8,268 bases of DNA. Source: Candidatus Latescibacterota bacterium. Its GTDB lineage: Bacteria > JAAXHH01 > JABIQT01. The notes beneath the pieces are model-generated. The model had not been told where the DNA came from, made no database searches, and saw only the letters and a program-made list of their open reading frames with translations. Positions 1 to 8,248 of the stretch are shown here, in pieces. Positions within the stretch are counted from its first letter, which is position 1, and every line of letters starts with the position of its first letter. The DNA lies in contig JABIQT010000503.1 in the NCBI GenBank assembly GCA_018667995.1, forward strand, positions 1-8,268. The letters are read 5' to 3'. Made by a program: the position numbers and the translations under genes.

Positions 1-956
1 CCTAGAGACTCGATTCTTGATAGTTTCCTAATCCTGTCACTGACGACATCGTCCTCATCGTGAGATTCAAGCCAGCCCTGCCATTCTGCTCTCTCGGGCA
101 AAGCCGTGCGTCCAGAAAGGACCAACCTGGCCTGTGAAAACTCAGCAAGATGTTGGGCGAGCAGATAACCTATATTGCCCAACCCACCCGTAATAAGATA
201 GGTACCTTTGTGCTTTAGTGGCGATTGACTGACACTCGATTCGGAAATAGGATTAGCGTCGTAGACTTGCTCCCACCTGTGTGATCCACGATAGGCTACC
301 TCAGTACACGGCCGTGATGCACGACATTCCAAGAGGATCCGATCGGCCAAGCGGTTTTCCTTCATGGAGATAGCATCATGCGCAACGATATCGATATTTC
401 TACATGCTATGTTTGGATACTCTTGAGGGATGACTTTGCACGCCGCCAAAATGGTTGTTTTTTCAGGTATTAGATGCTCATCACCAGATACGTCGTGTAA
501 CCCATTCGAAACAACCTCAATCTGAATCGACTCTACGACTCTGTGTCTTCCTAATGCTTGTGTCAGGTAGAGCAGACTGTAGAACCCATTTACCTGCGCA
601 GTCTCAAAAGCATCATCTGTATTGAGGACCTGAGGTCCATCCTCTGGAATAACACTCCAGAGATGTAATATCCTGTTCGGAATCTCCCCAGAGGCAAGAA
701 TGGCCTCGATCAACATGCTATAGTCATCACTGTTCTCAGGATTTATGCAATAGGATCCGTCATCAAGCTGGCTGAAGCTCGCACCCGCAGCGACGCTGAT
801 GACCCGCGGGTCAAAATCCGCGACTTCTCGAATGATATTGGTCCCAAGACCATAGGCGTCGAGAAAAACCAGCCATCGCTCCCCCGAAACATCCTGTTCC
901 TCTCGAGCCTGTACGGGAATGGCAGACCTCTTCCAGGACGGTGTGTAGAACCAGTC
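1..956 (-). other. Ketoreductase domain (N-terminal part only)
   Basis: Residues about 1615 to the window edge. The structural subdomain begins DWFYTPSWKR. The catalytic Rossmann subdomain begins near 1863 with KGTYLITGGLGNIG, the NADPH-binding glycine motif lying at 1871-1877. The catalytic Ser, Tyr and Lys, and the residues that set hydroxyl stereochemistry, lie beyond the left edge. Activity and product configuration therefore cannot be judged. The structural subdomain follows the post-AT linker after about 25 residues, so no dehydratase is present. Confidence 0.9.
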
Positions 957-3900
957 CGAAACCGGCAATTTGTCGGTATTGCGCCGAACGGTATCGCTTT
1001 CAAGGGGTTCCTGATACGGCTTGTCTTCTATCCAGTAACGCTTTCGTTCGAATGGATAGGTCGGCAAGGGAACACGACGACGACGCTGATCCGTATAGAA
1101 CGAGGACCAGGAAGGCAGCACATCAGCCATCCAGAGTCGCCCCAGCGATTCGAGCATATATGCCATATCAGATTTCTTTTCAGCTGGATTGCGCAGTGAC
1201 GACACTGCAACACGGTTCTGGCCGGATTTGTGTTGCTTGATTAACGTGCTCAATGTCTTGCCAGGCCCCACTTCCAGTAATGCTAGATTGGGATCCTCCA
1301 GCAGCGTCTCAGCGCCTTGAGAAAAGTGAACGGTCTGACGAAGATTACGTGCCCAGTACTCGGGATCACACATGTCTTCCTTTACCCAGTTTCCCGTGAC
1401 TGTGGACATGAGGGCTAAGCCTGGTTCACGTAAGGAAACGCGGCGCACCTGTTCCGTAAATGGCGCAACGATTGATTCCATCATTGAGGAGTGGAAGGCA
1501 TGAGAAGTGTGCAGGCGCTTACACGGTCTCCCATCTGCACTAAGCCGCTGTTCCAACTCCGTCACGGCATCTTCGTCGCCAGAGATAACACATAGAGAAG
1601 GGCTATTGACCGCGGCAAGGGAAAGGTGGCCTTCCAGATAGGGGGCAACCTCTTTCTCTGTAAGCGAGACGCTGAGCATGGAACCACCAGGCAGTTCTGC
1701 AATCATTCGGCCGCGGGTCGCTACTAGTCCCAGTGCCTCTTCTACGGTAAAAACACCTGCCAGAGTGGCGGCCACATACTCACCGATGCTGTGCCCTATC
1801 AGAGCAGTTGGGTTGATATCCCAGGACATCCAGAGTCTTGCCAGTGCGTACTCCACGACAAATAGAGCCGGCTGAGTGATTAAGGTATTTCTGAGTGCCT
1901 CATTGGTGGCACTACTTTCAGCAGGCGGATATATCAGGTCCCGAATATCTAGTCCAAGGTGGGGTCTAAGGATCTCTGAGCAGTAGTCCACGTGGGCCCG
2001 GTATTCCGGTTCAGTTTCGTACAGTTCGAGTCCCATGTTAGGGTATTGTGCCCCCTGTCCAGGAAACATGAAGACTAATTCCCGGCTTGCCCGCTTCTGT
2101 ACCGAGGTAAGCACACGCTTCCGATCCGCACCTTCCAGAGTTGCTATGGCGTCATCAACATTTTGAGCAACCACCACCCGGCGGTGATCAAAAACCCGGC
2201 GCCCATTCTTCAGCGTGTAAGCCACGTCGGCAAGAATCGAATCTGGTTGTTGCCTTAGGTGTGATGCGAGCCTGGCGGTAGCGGAGTTCAGAGCCGATTC
2301 GGTCTTCGCGGAAAGAACCAGCAGTTGCCACGGCCGACTGGGCCCATCGCCTGTTTCAATCTGGGGTGGCTCTTCGAGAATCACGTGCGCATTGGTCCCA
2401 CCGATTCCAAGGGAATTGACGCCAGCACGAATGGGCTGTGGTACTGAGGTCCATTCTCTCAGAGTGTCGTTCACATAAAAAGGGCTACTCTCGAAATCAA
2501 TCTCAGGATTCGGTTCCTCGTAATTCAGGCTAGCGGGTATCATCTTGTTCTTCAGAGCAAGGGCGGTCTTGATGAGACTGGCCATACCTGCCGCTGCGTC
2601 CAGGTGACCGATGTTGGTTTTGACGGATCCGATGGCACAGAATCCATTCTCGGCCGTCGTAGCACGGAAAGCTTTCGTCAAAGCGGCGATCTCTATGGGA
2701 TCTCCCAACACCGTACCCGTTCCGTGCGCCTCGATATATGAAATGGATTCGGCATCAACTCCGGCATTGGACATCGCCTCGGCGATACAGTCAGACTGTC
2801 GATTTACGCTGGGAGCCGTATAGTCTGCTTTGGCCGATCCGTCATTATTGATGGCGGATCCCTTGGCGACCGCATAGATACAATCGCCATCATCAATAGC
2901 CTCTTCCAGCCGCTTGAGGACGATGACACCACCGCCGCTGCCGATAATTGTGCCTCCCGCCTTCGCGTCAAACGTTCGCACGTGGCCGTCGGCATTGAAG
3001 ATTCCGCCCTCCTGGTACATATGCCCGTTTTGGTGGGGAACGCGTACACTGACGCCTCCCGCCATGGCCATATCGCACTCGCCGTTCCACAGCGACTGGC
3101 AAGCCATGTGAAATGCGACGAGTGATGTAGAACACGCCGTCTGCACGGTTACTCCGGGGCCACCCAGGTTCAACTTGTACGACGCCCGCGTAGTCATGTA
3201 GTTATTGTCATTGGCAATTAATCCCGGTATAAAATCTGCGCCAAAATCAGGCACTAAAAGATGATAGAACAGCAGATAGGTATTCATTGATGCGCCGGCA
3301 TATATACCTATTGATCCGTCATATGAATCCGAGCTGTATCCCGCATGTTCTAAGGCCTGCCAGGCCCACTCCAGGAAGAGCCGATGCTGCGGGTCCATAA
3401 TCTGGGCCTCCCGCGGGGCATACCCGAAGAAAGAGGCATCAAACATCTCCGGATCGTCCAGAATGGGGGCTGCCTTTACATAGTTCGGATTTGCCAACAC
3501 TGCAGGATCCACACCAGAACGAATGATCTCCTCGTTAGTAAGGAATGTAATGCTCTCCTTACTATCGATCAGATTCTGCCAGAATTCATCCACGTTCCTC
3601 GCCCCAGGAAATCCGCCGGCCATGCCGACTATGGCGAGACCACTCTTCTCCTGGTCGGTCCTACCAGCACGCCTGCGTTGACCTCTCACTTGGGCGTTCG
3701 GAGGTAGTTGTTTGGCGTGAGATCCCGAACTGAATGCCTTCGCCATCGCATGTATGGTAGGATTTTCGAAGAGGGCAACAATAGAAAGATCGAGATTCAG
3801 CTGTTCCCGTAACCTGGCTATCAGTCGTACACCTAGCAGCGAGGTGCCACCGATGTCGAAAAAATTGTCGTGGATGCCGACATCATCGAGATTCAGGGCT

Positions 3901-5798
3901 TCCTGCCAAAGACCGCAGATCGTGCCTTCCATATCGCTTAACAATGGGAAGTCGCCACGCCCAGAATGCCCGCTGGGCCTCGCATAGGTCTGCACTATAC
4001 GATCGGCAGTGTTCAAATCTATGGCAATTCGTCGGTAAATATCGGAGGCGAAACGCCCCGATATTTCATCTGAAGCCGAAAGAGCCGATGGCTCGCCTTT
4101 GTTGGACGCCGTACTCGGATCTGTTTCAACTGGCTGATAGCGGGTCGATACGGCGTAGGCCGTAGGCAACAGATAATTAAACTCATCCTCTCCTGGCTGC
4201 CGATATGCGACCCCGATACTATCTATGAAATCCAGCGCAGGGCGATTCTTCGACGTCGGTCTCAGCAGTAGATCAACAATGCCCAGACCTAGCTCTGAGG
4301 CCATGGTCCCCATGTGGGCCAGCATACGATGCTCCACGCCCCGTCCCAGTACGCGGCAGCTCAGCAAAAACGTATCAATCTTGAGTGCATCCGACGTGAA
4401 CTCATATAATATCACACCAACCAGGCCATAATCGCCAAACCGATCGCGTACCTCACATACCATCGCTTTCAGCTCGCCGGCCTTCAAGAGTGAAGCGATT
4501 TCCGCTTCCGTGCGCCGAATCGTCGTAAAATTGAACTGGTTGGTACGAAGGGTAAGTTGGGCGAGTCTGCCCAATTGCTCTGGCAGCGGCGGCGACATGC
4601 TTACTTCAAGCTTCAGACCGGCAAGGAAGTCGGACAGCGTAAGAGACTCCTGCTTCATCTGCCGCCTCTGTACATTCTGCCTATAGGAGTCGGTACGTTT
4701 CCTATCTTCTTCGGTGACCGAAAGATGATCAAAAGCCCAAATATGTGCGAGGAAACCTGGAATATCCGACGGATCTACTGGCAGCAGTAAGGTAAGCGCT
4801 TCCGGGCAGCCAGACTGGACTTCAGCGCATTCGATCGGATTATCGTCCACGAAGATAAAACTGTCCAGACCCAGCTGTAACTCCTGCGCCAACTCCTTGA
4901 TATTCTCTGATTTAGGACGCCAGTTTATACGCCACGATACCAGATCATTCCGAGCTATTGGCATGGTGGCGTGGTAATCGAATACGGCGGTGACATCTTC
5001 CTCCACATTCTTACTGCACAAGCAGAGCAACATCCCGGCATTACGCTGCTGAATCATGAATGATTGCAAAGCATGATATGGCGTGTCAATTTCAACTCCC
5101 TCAGGACCATCTTCCGCACAGACTCCCCGCCATAAAGTGTGGTCACAGTCCAGTACGATGACCTTATAGGGAGCACTTTGGATCGCGTAATAACGCCTGA
5201 AGATCAAAGTTCCGAGCGCTGAAAAATATCCGGATGTGTAGGGTAGATGCCCCAGCTTATCACCTTCCAAATCAAAAATCTCTTCAACTGGATAGAGATC
5301 TGTCACTTCCGCCCGAGTCACGAAATACACATTGCTCAGGTGCCCCAATCCAGATCTAACGGTCTCTTCGAGTTGAGTACAATATTCGTCAGAAAGGGTA
5401 TCCGGAAGCGGCGGGCAGATACTGATAAGATGCGGCCTGGCAGTGTGCAAGGTCGATGTCTCGATTGCACTGATCAGGTGGGTAGCGTTCGCTGCAACTT
5501 TCTCCAGACCTGCCACCGAGGTGTCGACTGTGACCGAACCGTCCCGTAACCAGTCGTCAAACTTCACAAGCACGACATTCAGCCCCTCATGGTTGATTAC
5601 GAAATGAGACTCAGGGTTCAGTAGCTGTTGAAAAACCTGATTATACGGGGCGAAATGTACGTCGCAGGGCCAAGAGGTCTCATCACTCCAGAAATCAAGG
5701 CTATCCGCCACTGGCTCACAGGTGAAAGTAGCAGAGATGGCCAAGACAGGCGCGTCTGCGGCTGCTCTTTTGGATGGTATGTCTATCGCGCTCTGCAT
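1..5798 (-). CDS. Modular type I polyketide synthase, FkbH-ACP-KS-AT-KR (partial, runs off left edge)
   Basis: This is a cytosolic megasynthase of at least 1,932 residues, open without a stop from the start codon to the window edge. Domains in order are an FkbH-like HAD domain (about 18-545), ACP (618-690), KS (719-1143), AT plus linker (1240-1589) and the start of a KR (from about 1615). FkbH followed by ACP at the N-terminus is a known loading arrangement for glycerate-derived starter units; KS-AT-KR then forms the first extension module. The AT-to-KR junction leaves no room for a dehydratase. The ATG at 5798 is chosen because it is the only in-frame ATG before residue 250, it follows a GGAAG element by 8 bases, and family-like sequence (ISATFTCEP, YNQVFQQLLNPES) begins soon after. 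An upstream in-frame TTG at 5861 is possible, but the residues it adds are not family-like. The C-terminal half of the KR and everything after it are missing. The class is certain; the product is not known. Confidence 0.95.
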   Translation of the reverse strand, partial: MQSAIDIPSKRAAADAPVLAISATFTCEPVADSLDFWSDETSWPCDVHFAPYNQVFQQLLNPESHFVINHEGLNVVLVKFDDWLRDGSVTVDTSVAGLEKVAANATHLISAIETSTLHTARPHLISICPPLPDTLSDEYCTQLEETVRSGLGHLSNVYFVTRAEVTDLYPVEEIFDLEGDKLGHLPYTSGYFSALGTLIFRRYYAIQSAPYKVIVLDCDHTLWRGVCAEDGPEGVEIDTPYHALQSFMIQQRNAGMLLCLCSKNVEEDVTAVFDYHATMPIARNDLVSWRINWRPKSENIKELAQELQLGLDSFIFVDDNPIECAEVQSGCPEALTLLLPVDPSDIPGFLAHIWAFDHLSVTEEDRKRTDSYRQNVQRRQMKQESLTLSDFLAGLKLEVSMSPPLPEQLGRLAQLTLRTNQFNFTTIRRTEAEIASLLKAGELKAMVCEVRDRFGDYGLVGVILYEFTSDALKIDTFLLSCRVLGRGVEHRMLAHMGTMASELGLGIVDLLLRPTSKNRPALDFIDSIGVAYRQPGEDEFNYLLPTAYAVSTRYQPVETDPSTASNKGEPSALSASDEISGRFASDIYRRIAIDLNTADRIVQTYARPSGHSGRGDFPLLSDMEGTICGLWQEALNLDDVGIHDNFFDIGGTSLLGVRLIARLREQLNLDLSIVALFENPTIHAMAKAFSSGSHAKQLPPNAQVRGQRRRAGRTDQEKSGLAIVGMAGGFPGARNVDEFWQNLIDSKESITFLTNEEIIRSGVDPAVLANPNYVKAAPILDDPEMFDASFFGYAPREAQIMDPQHRLFLEWAWQALEHAGYSSDSYDGSIGIYAGASMNTYLLFYHLLVPDFGADFIPGLIANDNNYMTTRASYKLNLGGPGVTVQTACSTSLVAFHMACQSLWNGECDMAMAGGVSVRVPHQNGHMYQEGGIFNADGHVRTFDAKAGGTIIGSGGGVIVLKRLEEAIDDGDCIYAVAKGSAINNDGSAKADYTAPSVNRQSDCIAEAMSNAGVDAESISYIEAHGTGTVLGDPIEIAALTKAFRATTAENGFCAIGSVKTNIGHLDAAAGMASLIKTALALKNKMIPASLNYEEPNPEIDFESSPFYVNDTLREWTSVPQPIRAGVNSLGIGGTNAHVILEEPPQIETGDGPSRPWQLLVLSAKTESALNSATARLASHLRQQPDSILADVAYTLKNGRRVFDHRRVVVAQNVDDAIATLEGADRKRVLTSVQKRASRELVFMFPGQGAQYPNMGLELYETEPEYRAHVDYCSEILRPHLGLDIRDLIYPPAESSATNEALRNTLITQPALFVVEYALARLWMSWDINPTALIGHSIGEYVAATLAGVFTVEEALGLVATRGRMIAELPGGSMLSVSLTEKEVAPYLEGHLSLAAVNSPSLCVISGDEDAVTELEQRLSADGRPCKRLHTSHAFHSSMMESIVAPFTEQVRRVSLREPGLALMSTVTGNWVKEDMCDPEYWARNLRQTVHFSQGAETLLEDPNLALLEVGPGKTLSTLIKQHKSGQNRVAVSSLRNPAEKKSDMAYMLESLGRLWMADVLPSWSSFYTDQRRRRVPLPTYPFERKRYWIEDKPYQEPLESDTVRRNTDKLPVSDWFYTPSWKRSAIPVQAREEQDVSGERWLVFLDAYGLGTNIIREVADFDPRVISVAAGASFSQLDDGSYCINPENSDDYSMLIEAILASGEIPNRILHLWSVIPEDGPQVLNTDDAFETAQVNGFYSLLYLTQALGRHRVVESIQIEVVSNGLHDVSGDEHLIPEKTTILAACKVIPQEYPNIACRNIDIVAHDAISMKENRLADRILLECRASRPCTEVAYRGSHRWEQVYDANPISESSVSQSPLKHKGTYLITGGLGNIGYLLAQHLAEFSQARLVLSGRTALPERAEWQGWLESHDEDDVVSDRIRKLSRIESL
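1032..2081 (-). other. Acyltransferase domain, predicted malonyl-CoA specific, with post-AT linker
   Basis: Residues about 1240-1589. It loads the extender unit onto the module's carrier protein. It begins FMFPGQGAQYP, has its nucleophile serine S1337 in GHSIGEY, and carries HAFH at 1433-1436. HAFH and GHSIGE are the established fingerprints for malonyl-CoA, as opposed to YASH and GHSQGE for methylmalonyl-CoA. The post-AT linker ends at RRVPLPTYPFERKRYW. Presence of this AT makes it a cis-AT system. Confidence 0.93.
2370..3647 (-). other. Ketosynthase domain of the first extension module
   Basis: Residues about 719-1143. It catalyses the decarboxylative condensation of the starter with an extender unit. 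The nucleophile is C889 in VQTACSTSL. The two catalytic histidines are H1025 in EAHGTGT and H1065 in SVKTNIGHL, with K1060 nearby. The domain ends with GIGGTNAHVILEE. With cysteine and both histidines present it looks like an active extending KS rather than a decarboxylating KSQ domain. Confidence 0.96.
3729..3947 (-). other. Acyl carrier protein domain of the loading module
   Basis: Residues about 618-690. The sequence NFFDIGGTSLLGVRL contains the phosphopantetheine attachment serine, S653, in a GGTSL context. The domain follows a low-complexity Ser/Thr/Asp-rich linker after FkbH and directly precedes the KS. This makes it the natural acceptor of the FkbH-loaded starter. Confidence 0.93.
4164..5747 (-). 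other. FkbH-like HAD-IIIC loading domain of the PKS
   Basis: Residues about 18-545 of the PKS. FkbH-type enzymes take 1,3-bisphosphoglycerate, dephosphorylate it and pass a glyceryl group to an ACP. The HAD aspartate motif reads VLDCDHTLWRG, with D217, D219 and T221. SKNVEED (from S262) and FVDDNP (D318, D319) supply the later HAD motifs. The C-terminal half carries the family-typical NQFNFTTIRR (420-429) and SCRVLGRGVE (480-489). C481 in the latter motif is a candidate acyl-carrying cysteine, which is an inference. All expected motifs are intact, so the domain looks active. Whether the glyceryl unit is kept or further modified cannot be seen here. Confidence 0.92.
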
Positions 5799-6706: not shown

Positions 6707-8248
6707 GTGCCCATACTAATGATCACAAACAAGCAACGTAACCTGGTTGCCCACCGGGGCGGACTAAAGGCTCCACTCTATCCCAGAGGAAGCCTTTTTG
6801 AACGCGTTGGCGGCCGGGATATCGTAGGCGAGATTATCGATGGTCTCTATGACCGAATCGAAACAGACACTCACCTGCGCCCCATGTTTGTCAGATCTCT
6901 GGAAGAAGAACGGAAAAAACAAAAGGCCTTTTTCGAGGAATGGATGGGAGGCGAGCCGCTATATACCTACCACTATGCGTACAGTGGACTGCTGGCACGT
7001 CACAGCCACATTCATATCTCCGGAGAATCTGCAAATCGCTGGCTCTCGCACATGAAGGCATCACTTAAGGCCACGCTTACGAACAAGGATTTGATCAAGG
7101 AGATTACAGAGGCACTTAGGCCATTAGCGCAAGGACTAGCCAACGAACCTCAAGACGCCGGGAATCCAAAACACCTGAGGTGTCACAGAGTCAATCGCTG
7201 GCGAAACCCCAAGGAACTAGCAGCCAAAGGAAATCTGCAGGAACTCAAGGTCATGATTGACTCAGATCCCTTATTATTGAGCGATCGCCGTCAGGCGGCG
7301 GAACTACTCCAGGCGGCGGTCCGCAGAGACCATCGCGAGATGATTACATTACTTATTGATCGCGGCGTGGATGTAAACATTCCGACAGGATTAGAGGTGG
7401 ACTTGCTCCTAACTCCTCACTGCCTGGCTATCTGGAAGAAACATGACCAACTCTCCAGATATCTGGAATCGAGGGGCGCTGTATATGATATATTCAGTGC
7501 CAGTTTTCTGGGTGATTTAGCAGCCGTTACAACCATGTGTGGATCTGCACCGGAATTAGTGAATGCTTCAGATCCCGCTTGTGATTTTCTGGCCATAACC
7601 CCATTGTATCATGCCGTTTATGGAAACCATTGCAGCATTGTTTCATATCTCTTTTCGTCTGGCGCGCAGGTCGGCCCCGCAAGCACAAGGCTAGTGCGCA
7701 GGGCAGCAGAGAACGGAAATGTGGAACTGGTGCACATCCTACTAAATAAAGGTGCAGATGCGTCCCGAGTCGGGCCGGGCAGCTGGGTTAAGAACCGGGT
7801 CATCGCGGATATTCTTCTGGAGCACGGTGCAGATGTCAATTATCCGGCTGGCAAGTGGGTCTGGGTATCGTGTACCGGGAATAACAGCCAGCGAGATAAC
7901 CCGGAATATCTAGCGGAACTCCTCAAGTGTGGTGCAGATACAGATACGAGACTACGTGGAGCATTGCCCGTTCACCATGTAGCCAAAGCAGGTCACCTTG
8001 GCTCGCTTAAAGTGTTGTTGGACAAGGGCGCTGACGTCAACGCCCCATCGGATAGTGGCGAAACACCACTACTCTACGCCCTGAAGGCTGGTAAACGAGC
8101 AGCCATGAATTCAATCTGCCAGATTCTGCTGGCAGCGGGGGCTGACCCTACCGTAAAAGATGCACGTGGACGGTCTGCACAAGACATAGCCCGAAGCTTG
8201 AAGCGTACCGATGCCCGGGAGATCGCTGAGACTATCGCAGGAGCTTAA
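6707..8248 (+). CDS. Truncated-haemoglobin / ankyrin-repeat fusion protein
   Basis: A complete 513-residue protein. Residues about 29-130 form a truncated (2-on-2) globin most like group II, with Y48 at B10, F61 at CD1, the proximal H99 in LLARHSHIHI and W112 at G8. From about residue 163 to the C-terminus there are roughly ten degenerate ankyrin repeats, recognisable from KGADAS, HGADVN, CGADTD and KGADVN turns. There is no signal peptide or membrane segment, so it is probably cytosolic. The globin half should bind haem and O2, NO or similar ligands; the ankyrin half should bind a protein partner. Both roles are family inference and the cellular role is unknown. The GTG at 6707 is the first possible start after an in-frame TAG at 6614. 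The ATG at 6719 (residue 5) is equally plausible, and neither has a clear Shine-Dalgarno site. It is transcribed divergently from the PKS. Confidence 0.9.
   Translation: MPILMITNKQRNLVAHRGGLKAPLYPRGSLFERVGGRDIVGEIIDGLYDRIETDTHLRPMFVRSLEEERKKQKAFFEEWMGGEPLYTYHYAYSGLLARHSHIHISGESANRWLSHMKASLKATLTNKDLIKEITEALRPLAQGLANEPQDAGNPKHLRCHRVNRWRNPKELAAKGNLQELKVMIDSDPLLLSDRRQAAELLQAAVRRDHREMITLLIDRGVDVNIPTGLEVDLLLTPHCLAIWKKHDQLSRYLESRGAVYDIFSASFLGDLAAVTTMCGSAPELVNASDPACDFLAITPLYHAVYGNHCSIVSYLFSSGAQVGPASTRLVRRAAENGNVELVHILLNKGADASRVGPGSWVKNRVIADILLEHGADVNYPAGKWVWVSCTGNNSQRDNPEYLAELLKCGADTDTRLRGALPVHHVAKAGHLGSLKVLLDKGADVNAPSDSGETPLLYALKAGKRAAMNSICQILLAAGADPTVKDARGRSAQDIARSLKRTDAREIAETIAGA
6791..7096 (+). 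other. Truncated haemoglobin domain
   Basis: Residues about 29-130 of the fusion protein, close to the roughly 120-residue length of free-standing truncated globins. The order SLFERVGG, GLYDRIETDTHLRPMF, FFEEWMGGEPLY, LLARH and NRWLSHM follows the family from the N-terminal A-helix to helix G. Proximal H99, B10 Y48 and G8 W112 are kept, so haem binding is expected. The usual His-Pro-Arg-Leu before the proximal histidine region is replaced by AYSGLLARH. Confidence 0.87.
7193..8245 (+). repeat. Ankyrin repeat array (about ten repeats)
   Basis: Residues about 163-513. Units of about 28-37 residues recur with helix pairs such as AAENGNVELVHILLNKGAD and VAKAGHLGSLKVLLDKGAD. The clearest units lie at about 297-323, 326-355, 418-448 and 451-485. 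Those near 163-260 and 358-415 are degenerate. The DNA also repeats GGTGCAGAT at 7751, 7826 and 7931, encoding the same turn. Exact repeat borders are uncertain. Confidence 0.85.

What the first reader, a model, noticed from the sequence alone, without database searches (positions are those of the whole stretch)
6707..8248. Truncated haemoglobin fused to an ankyrin-repeat scaffold
Seen directly: one frame joins a globin with intact B10 Tyr, CD1 Phe, F8 His and G8 Trp positions to about ten ankyrin repeats. Known: bacterial truncated globins are mostly single-domain, and ankyrin arrays are protein-binding scaffolds. Inference: ligand binding at haem could control a partner held by the ankyrin repeats, giving a gas- or redox-responsive adaptor. 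I am not aware of a characterised protein with this architecture, but I could not search for one.
Basis: partly seen in the sequence, partly recalled or inferred. Interest (0 to 1): 0.62.

Follow-up and report, generated by a model that had tools for sequence, protein, structure and literature searches.

The report
Haemoglobin fused to ankyrin protein-binding scaffold
A little-known lineage of mostly sponge-associated bacteria carries a real, evolutionarily old protein in which a small haem-binding globin is built onto a protein-docking scaffold; the scaffold also exists on its own in other bacteria, the arrangement appears undescribed, and its function is untested.

Summary
Window 6707-8248 (+) is one 513-codon frame joining a group II truncated haemoglobin (residues ~26-146; model rmsd ~1.5 Å to solved Bacillus-type trHbO) to about 11 predicted ankyrin hairpins (~161-512). 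It is not an assembly join: the fusion occurs in 14 of 16 genomes of its phylum (named orthologues are Latescibacterota or 'Gemmatimonadetes' MAGs) and, at 33-35% identity, in two genomes of a second phylum. Both domains are under purifying selection. B10 Tyr, CD1 Phe, F8 His, G8 Trp and the YjbI Tyr63 equivalent are invariant in every fused protein that covers them; E7 and E11 differ between the phyla. The ankyrin array is itself an old family: collinear ~390-aa globin-free homologues occur in more than 50 genomes of the second phylum. Fused globins form one clade (98/94) and free ankyrins separate from fused ones (98/91), so a single ancient fusion is the simplest reading. Gene neighbours are not conserved. 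Function is inferred: most likely a haem redox centre tethered to a partner protein, with a ligand sensor nearly as plausible. I found no description of this architecture in the open papers searched. It is a new variant of chimeric truncated globins.

The parts
6707..8248 (+). Gene for the trHb-ankyrin fusion protein (513 aa, GTG start; alternative ATG start at 6719)
   Evidence: orthologues
6752..6763 (+). N-terminal extension with the HRGG motif (residues 16-19); H16, R17 and G18 are invariant in all 15 fused proteins that cover it, in both phyla
6782..7144 (+). Group II truncated haemoglobin domain (residues ~26-146): Tyr48 B10, Phe61 CD1, Glu68 E7, Gln72 E11, Phe75 E14, Tyr86 (YjbI Tyr63), His99 F8, Trp112 G8
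   Evidence: Pfam PF01152; PDB sequence hits 2bkm and 1ux8; model matches 5v3t, 2bkm and 1ux8 at rmsd 1.4-2.8 Å; conservation
7145..7186 (+). Linker (residues ~147-160) with C159, invariant in the fused proteins compared
7187..8242 (+). Ankyrin array, about 11 helical hairpins (residues ~161-512); C389, G391, N392, N393 and R396 invariant in all 16 fused proteins

Best explanation
A group II truncated haemoglobin was joined once, long ago, to the N-terminus of a pre-existing ankyrin adaptor family. Shown computationally: the architecture, its conservation, the intact haem-binding residues, the globin fold, and the existence of globin-free ankyrin homologues. Inferred: the protein binds haem b through His99; the ankyrin array docks a specific protein partner; and the globin performs haem redox chemistry (peroxidase-like, as in Bacillus YjbI, or NO/O2 chemistry) on or next to that partner. 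In short, a tethered haem redox module in the cytoplasm, not a free-floating oxygen carrier.
For: The globin's closest solved relatives are Bacillus-type group II trHbs. YjbI removes hydroperoxides from proteins, and Tyr63 is required for that (PMC9536834). The equivalents of YjbI Tyr25, Tyr63 and Trp89 (Tyr48, Tyr86, Trp112) are invariant in every fused protein that covers them, in two phyla, while E7 and E11 vary. Tyr B10, Trp G8 and Gln E11 are the H-bonding residues that PMC4720485 ties to moderate or slow O2 release, with redox or peroxidase roles proposed for group II. Both domains show dN/dS mostly 0.1-0.2. The collinear stand-alone ankyrin family shows that the docking part is an independent unit. 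In one genome (G013) the adjacent convergent gene is a peptide methionine sulfoxide reductase, which is weak support because it is not conserved elsewhere.
Against: There is no biochemical evidence of haem binding or peroxidase activity. No partner, reductase or conserved operon was found: neighbours differ between the three genera compared. Glu at E7 is unusual among the group II globins compared and could change access to the pocket. The HHAYGG and RH.HIHI loop around F8 is specific to the window's phylum, and part of that region has low confidence in the full-length model.
Confidence: 0.42

Rival explanations
1. Gas- or redox-responsive adaptor: ligand or redox state of the haem changes the globin conformation and switches what the ankyrin array binds, as in globin-coupled sensors.
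For: A globin at the N-terminus of an independently existing adaptor is the layout of haem-based sensors; the ankyrin family occurs without the globin, so the globin could be a regulatory add-on. The linker Cys and the N-terminal HRGG motif are conserved across two phyla, hinting at domain coupling.
Against: The distal residues Tyr B10, Trp G8 and Gln E11 are those linked to slow O2 release in trHbs (PMC4720485), poor for a reversible O2 sensor; E7 and E11 differ between phyla; no domain-domain interface could be assessed (no PAE available).
Confidence: 0.3
2. Eukaryote-like effector for host interaction: an ankyrin protein used by sponge symbionts on the host, with the globin protecting against host oxidants or NO.
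For: Named orthologue MAGs are Latescibacterota or Gemmatimonadetes bins, groups reported from sponges with many ankyrin proteins (PMC8163846, PMC12993501); in one genus the gene lies in a region rich in ankyrin genes; sponge-symbiont ankyrin proteins can alter phagocytosis (work cited in PMC8163846).
Against: No signal peptide is evident (the N-terminus is charged and hydrophilic); an orthologue occurs in an ERR599008-derived MAG that I take to be a plankton sample; PMC8163846 notes that few sponge MAG lineages encode secretion systems; the gene's neighbourhood is not an ankyrin island in the window or in G013.
Confidence: 0.13
3. Haem function has been lost and the globin fold is only a structural cap for the ankyrin array.
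For: No haem binding has been shown; the E-F region has low confidence in the full-length model; E7 Glu is unusual.
Against: F8 His, G8 Trp, B10 Tyr, CD1 Phe and E14 Phe are invariant in all fused proteins that cover them despite 33-35% identity between phyla; the 18-sequence model gives a confident group II trHb fold.
Confidence: 0.08
4. Two separate genes joined by an assembly or sequencing error.
For: The window is a single 8.3-kb contig of a fragmented MAG (1165 contigs).
Against: Single-frame orthologues in 12 other assemblies of the phylum, some on multi-megabase contigs, and in two genomes of another phylum.
Confidence: 0.01

Closest known systems
Group II truncated haemoglobins (trHbO), e.g. 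Bacillus subtilis YjbI (1ux8), Geobacillus (2bkm), B. anthracis (5v3t)
   Same: 2-on-2 globin fold, B10 Tyr, CD1 Phe, E11 Gln, E14 Phe, F8 His, G8 Trp, and the Tyr63 needed for YjbI's peroxidase-like activity
   Different: Those are single-domain; here the globin is followed by ~350 residues of ankyrin repeats, has Glu at E7 (Thr in the Bacillus-type proteins) and forms its own clade
Globin-coupled sensors and flavohaemoglobins (chimeric globins)
   Same: N-terminal globin fused to a partner domain
   Different: Those use 3-on-3 globins and catalytic, signalling or reductase partners; here a 2-on-2 globin is fused to a non-catalytic repeat scaffold
Truncated haemoglobin fused to an antibiotic-biosynthesis-monooxygenase domain in Streptomyces (from memory; not checked here)
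   Same: A truncated globin in a two-domain chimera
   Different: Different partner domain and different phylum
Stand-alone ~390-aa ankyrin family of the second phylum (e.g. L018, L086)
   Same: Collinear with residues ~172-510 of the window protein (27-28% identity)
   Different: No globin; in most loci examined it sits next to PhyH-like and acetyltransferase-like genes; lacks the C.GNN..R motif of the fused forms (CRGDKGE in L018, SRGDKGE in L086)
Ankyrin-repeat eukaryote-like proteins of sponge symbionts
   Same: Ankyrin repeats; reported in sponge-associated Latescibacterota
   Different: Those papers describe them by repeat class; the word globin does not occur in PMC8163846 or PMC12993501

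Membership tests
Group II truncated haemoglobin (trHbO) | Match to the PF01152 family above the curated cut-off | tested here: met
   62 bits against 21
Group II truncated haemoglobin (trHbO) | 2-on-2 fold closest to group II structures | tested here: met
   Foldseek best hits 5v3t, 2bkm, 1ux8, 5d1v, rmsd 1.4-2.8 Å over ~120 columns; groups I and III rank lower
Group II truncated haemoglobin (trHbO) | Proximal His F8, Tyr B10, Trp G8 | tested here: met
   His99, Tyr48, Trp112; invariant in all fused proteins covering them
Group II truncated haemoglobin (trHbO) | Binds haem b, with characteristic ligand spectra | not testable with these tools
   needs purified protein
YjbI-type protein hydroperoxide peroxidase | Equivalents of Tyr25, Tyr63 and Trp89 | tested here: met
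   Tyr48, Tyr86, Trp112
YjbI-type protein hydroperoxide peroxidase | Removal of hydroperoxides from proteins | not testable with these tools
   enzymatic assay required
Globin-coupled sensor (GCS) | 3-on-3 sensor-type globin domain | tested here: not met
   The domain is a 2-on-2 truncated globin, so it is not a GCS, though it might work like one
Ankyrin-repeat protein | Tandem ~33-residue helix-turn-helix repeats above Pfam cut-offs | tested here: met
   Ank_2 92.5 bits against 27.3; ~11 hairpins in the model
Dot/Icm ankyrin effectors (NCBIfam AnkY and others) | Score above the equivalog cut-off | tested here: not met
   42.8 bits against a cut-off of 600; generic ankyrin similarity only

The most novel reading that the evidence does not exclude
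A new class of haem-based signalling or repair adaptor: a truncated (2-on-2) globin whose ligand or redox state controls, or acts on, a specific protein partner held by an ankyrin array. It arose once and is present in at least two bacterial phyla, alongside a globin-free version of the same adaptor.
Probability: 0.35. Interest if true: 0.75.

Novelty: new variant of a known kind. Interest (0 to 1): 0.55.

Why it matters
Few multidomain truncated globins are known, and what most group II trHbs do is unsettled. A conserved fusion names a physical partner (the ankyrin array and whatever it binds), which makes the role of a group II globin directly testable by pull-down. The globin-free version of the same ankyrin family gives a natural control for what the globin adds.

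Tried and rejected
Assembly error: rejected. Operon-based function: neighbours are not conserved between the window (divergent PKS gene), G013 (DEAD-box helicase, MsrA) and the f3 genus (UvrA, ankyrin island, BNR protein), so no partner could be inferred. Legionella-type Ank effector membership: far below cut-offs. Other long globin frames in 384 sampled genomes (G260, G110, G043, G100, G191): by eye the extra sequence looks like out-of-frame read-through; G142 carries tandem globins; none shows ankyrins (these were not run through Pfam). Plasmid collection: only ankyrin matches, none covering 80% of the query. PHROGs: only matches to the ankyrin part. Recent local fusion with the genome's own single-domain trHbO: rejected, because the fused globins form a separate clade. 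Foldseek with the whole model listed ankyrins and was uninformative for the globin, so the globin was modelled separately.

Full report
What is there. The frame 6707-8248 (+) encodes 513 residues. Pfam finds a Bac_globin domain at 29-142 and ankyrin repeats to the C-terminus. The globin's best sequence matches among solved structures are group II truncated haemoglobins from Geobacillus and Bacillus. (The helix-position names rest on my knowledge of YjbI numbering: Tyr25 B10, Thr45 E7, Gln49 E11, His76 F8, Trp89 G8.) AlphaFold2 with 14 orthologues gave mean pLDDT 85 and about 11 ankyrin hairpins, with low confidence in the loop before F8. The globin alone, modelled with 18 sequences, matched group II trHb structures at rmsd 1.4-2.8 Å over ~120 positions.

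Is it real. Yes. The window is contig C850 of a 6.06-Mb, 1165-contig genome. Within its phylum (16 genomes held) the fused gene is present in 14: 13 in one frame including the window (one of these, in G012, has an altered C-terminus) and one split over two contigs. It is missing from G011 (99% complete) and G001 (83% complete), where no relative of the ankyrin array was found either at E <= 1e-25, so the gene appears to be kept or lost as a unit. Named carriers are MAGs labelled Latescibacterota or Gemmatimonadetes, including contigs of 2.5 and 2.9 Mb, plus one MAG from run ERR599008. Pairwise dN/dS within the f3 orthologues is mostly 0.1-0.2 for both domains.

Wider distribution. Among 384 genomes sampled across the domain, 53 have PF01152 matches; the only ankyrin-fused globins seen there were in this phylum. 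A profile of the ankyrin part then found collinear ~390-residue proteins without a globin in G054 and G199. These belong to a second phylum of 84 held genomes, in which 58 have the ankyrin family, nearly all in ~390-aa frames. Only three genomes of that phylum have any PF01152 match, and two of them (G390, G391) carry it fused to this ankyrin family. These 575-576-aa proteins are 33-35% identical to the window protein along most of its length, including the N-terminal HRGG motif. G391 also has the stand-alone form. A profile of the whole fusion run on 386 genomes around G391 found no fused copy outside the two phyla.

Origin. The fused globins form one clade against single-domain globins (98/94), including the window genome's own trHbO. 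On the ankyrin tree the stand-alone proteins form one side of a branch (98/91); the fused proteins of the two phyla are separated only by a long outgroup branch with negligible support (46/16). One fusion, passed vertically or between phyla, is the simplest reading; loss of the globin from the stand-alone lineage is not excluded. The second phylum is not named by the tool.

Haem pocket. In all fused proteins covering each site, B10 Tyr (15/15), CD1 Phe (15/15), E14 Phe (15/15), F8 His (16/16), G8 Trp (16/16) and the equivalent of YjbI Tyr63 (16/16) are invariant. E7 is Glu in the window's phylum and Gly in the other; E11 is Gln and Leu. The single-domain group II proteins compared have small or neutral residues at E7, so Glu at E7 is a distinguishing feature of the window's group.

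How it may work. Shown: predicted fold, conserved pocket, conserved array, independent existence of the array. Inferred: haem binding, a protein partner, and chemistry or sensing at the haem. Tyr B10, Trp G8 and Gln E11 are among the residues that PMC4720485 associates with moderate to slow ligand release, and that paper suggests redox and peroxidase functions for many group II members. YjbI removes hydroperoxides from proteins, needs Tyr63, and has a wide surface opening (PMC9536834). A protein-docking array would suit a protein-directed peroxidase, so I rank a tethered redox module (0.42) above a ligand-switched adaptor (0.30). The difference is small and only experiments can settle it. A host-directed eukaryote-like protein is possible given the reported sponge association of these groups (PMC8163846, PMC12993501), but no signal peptide is evident and one carrier MAG appears planktonic.

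Context. Gene neighbours differ between genera and so give no partner. In the second phylum the fused gene is followed after about 8 bases by a putative phosphotransferase-like gene (identified by eye only), and the stand-alone ankyrin gene usually lies between PhyH-like genes and an Antibiotic_NAT gene.

Novelty. Open-access full-text searches for truncated haemoglobin or globin with ankyrin gave no paper describing the fusion. Subscription journals and architecture databases could not be searched, so prior listing of the architecture in Pfam or InterPro is possible. It is a new variant of chimeric truncated globins, not a categorically new system.

Noticed in passing
window 3-5798 (-): Large type I polyketide synthase fragment (1932 aa, runs off the contig) with an FkbH-type HAD domain, carrier protein, KS, AT and the start of a KR; divergent from the globin gene.
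   Followed up: partly
L111 5108-10060 and L114-L132: In the second phylum the stand-alone ankyrin gene sits in a recurrent cluster: PhyH-like dioxygenase genes upstream in most loci, then an Antibiotic_NAT-like gene and a gene without a Pfam match. Possible functional link between iron/O2-dependent dioxygenases and this ankyrin family.
   Followed up: partly
L067 (G000:C796) and L068 (G000:C748): The window's genome has two further truncated globins: a single-domain trHbO and one with an apparent N-terminal signal sequence.
   Followed up: partly
L061 (G142:C138): Two adjacent frames each encode a probable exported protein with two tandem truncated-globin domains, an unusual architecture.
   Followed up: no
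G014:C269:14529-14630: A second, partial match to the first ~34 residues of the fused globin in a 70-aa frame, possibly a remnant of a duplicated copy.
   Followed up: no
L025 9529-16087: In the f3 genus the fusion gene lies beside several other ankyrin genes, a BNR-repeat (sialidase-like) gene and an AHSA1-domain gene that abuts an ankyrin gene.
   Followed up: partly
window residues 89-104 (6971-7018): His-rich loop around F8 (HHAYGG ... RHGHIHIT in the consensus): H101 and H103 are invariant in the window's phylum but Lys and Ala in the second phylum; possible extra metal or haem-edge ligands.
   Followed up: no
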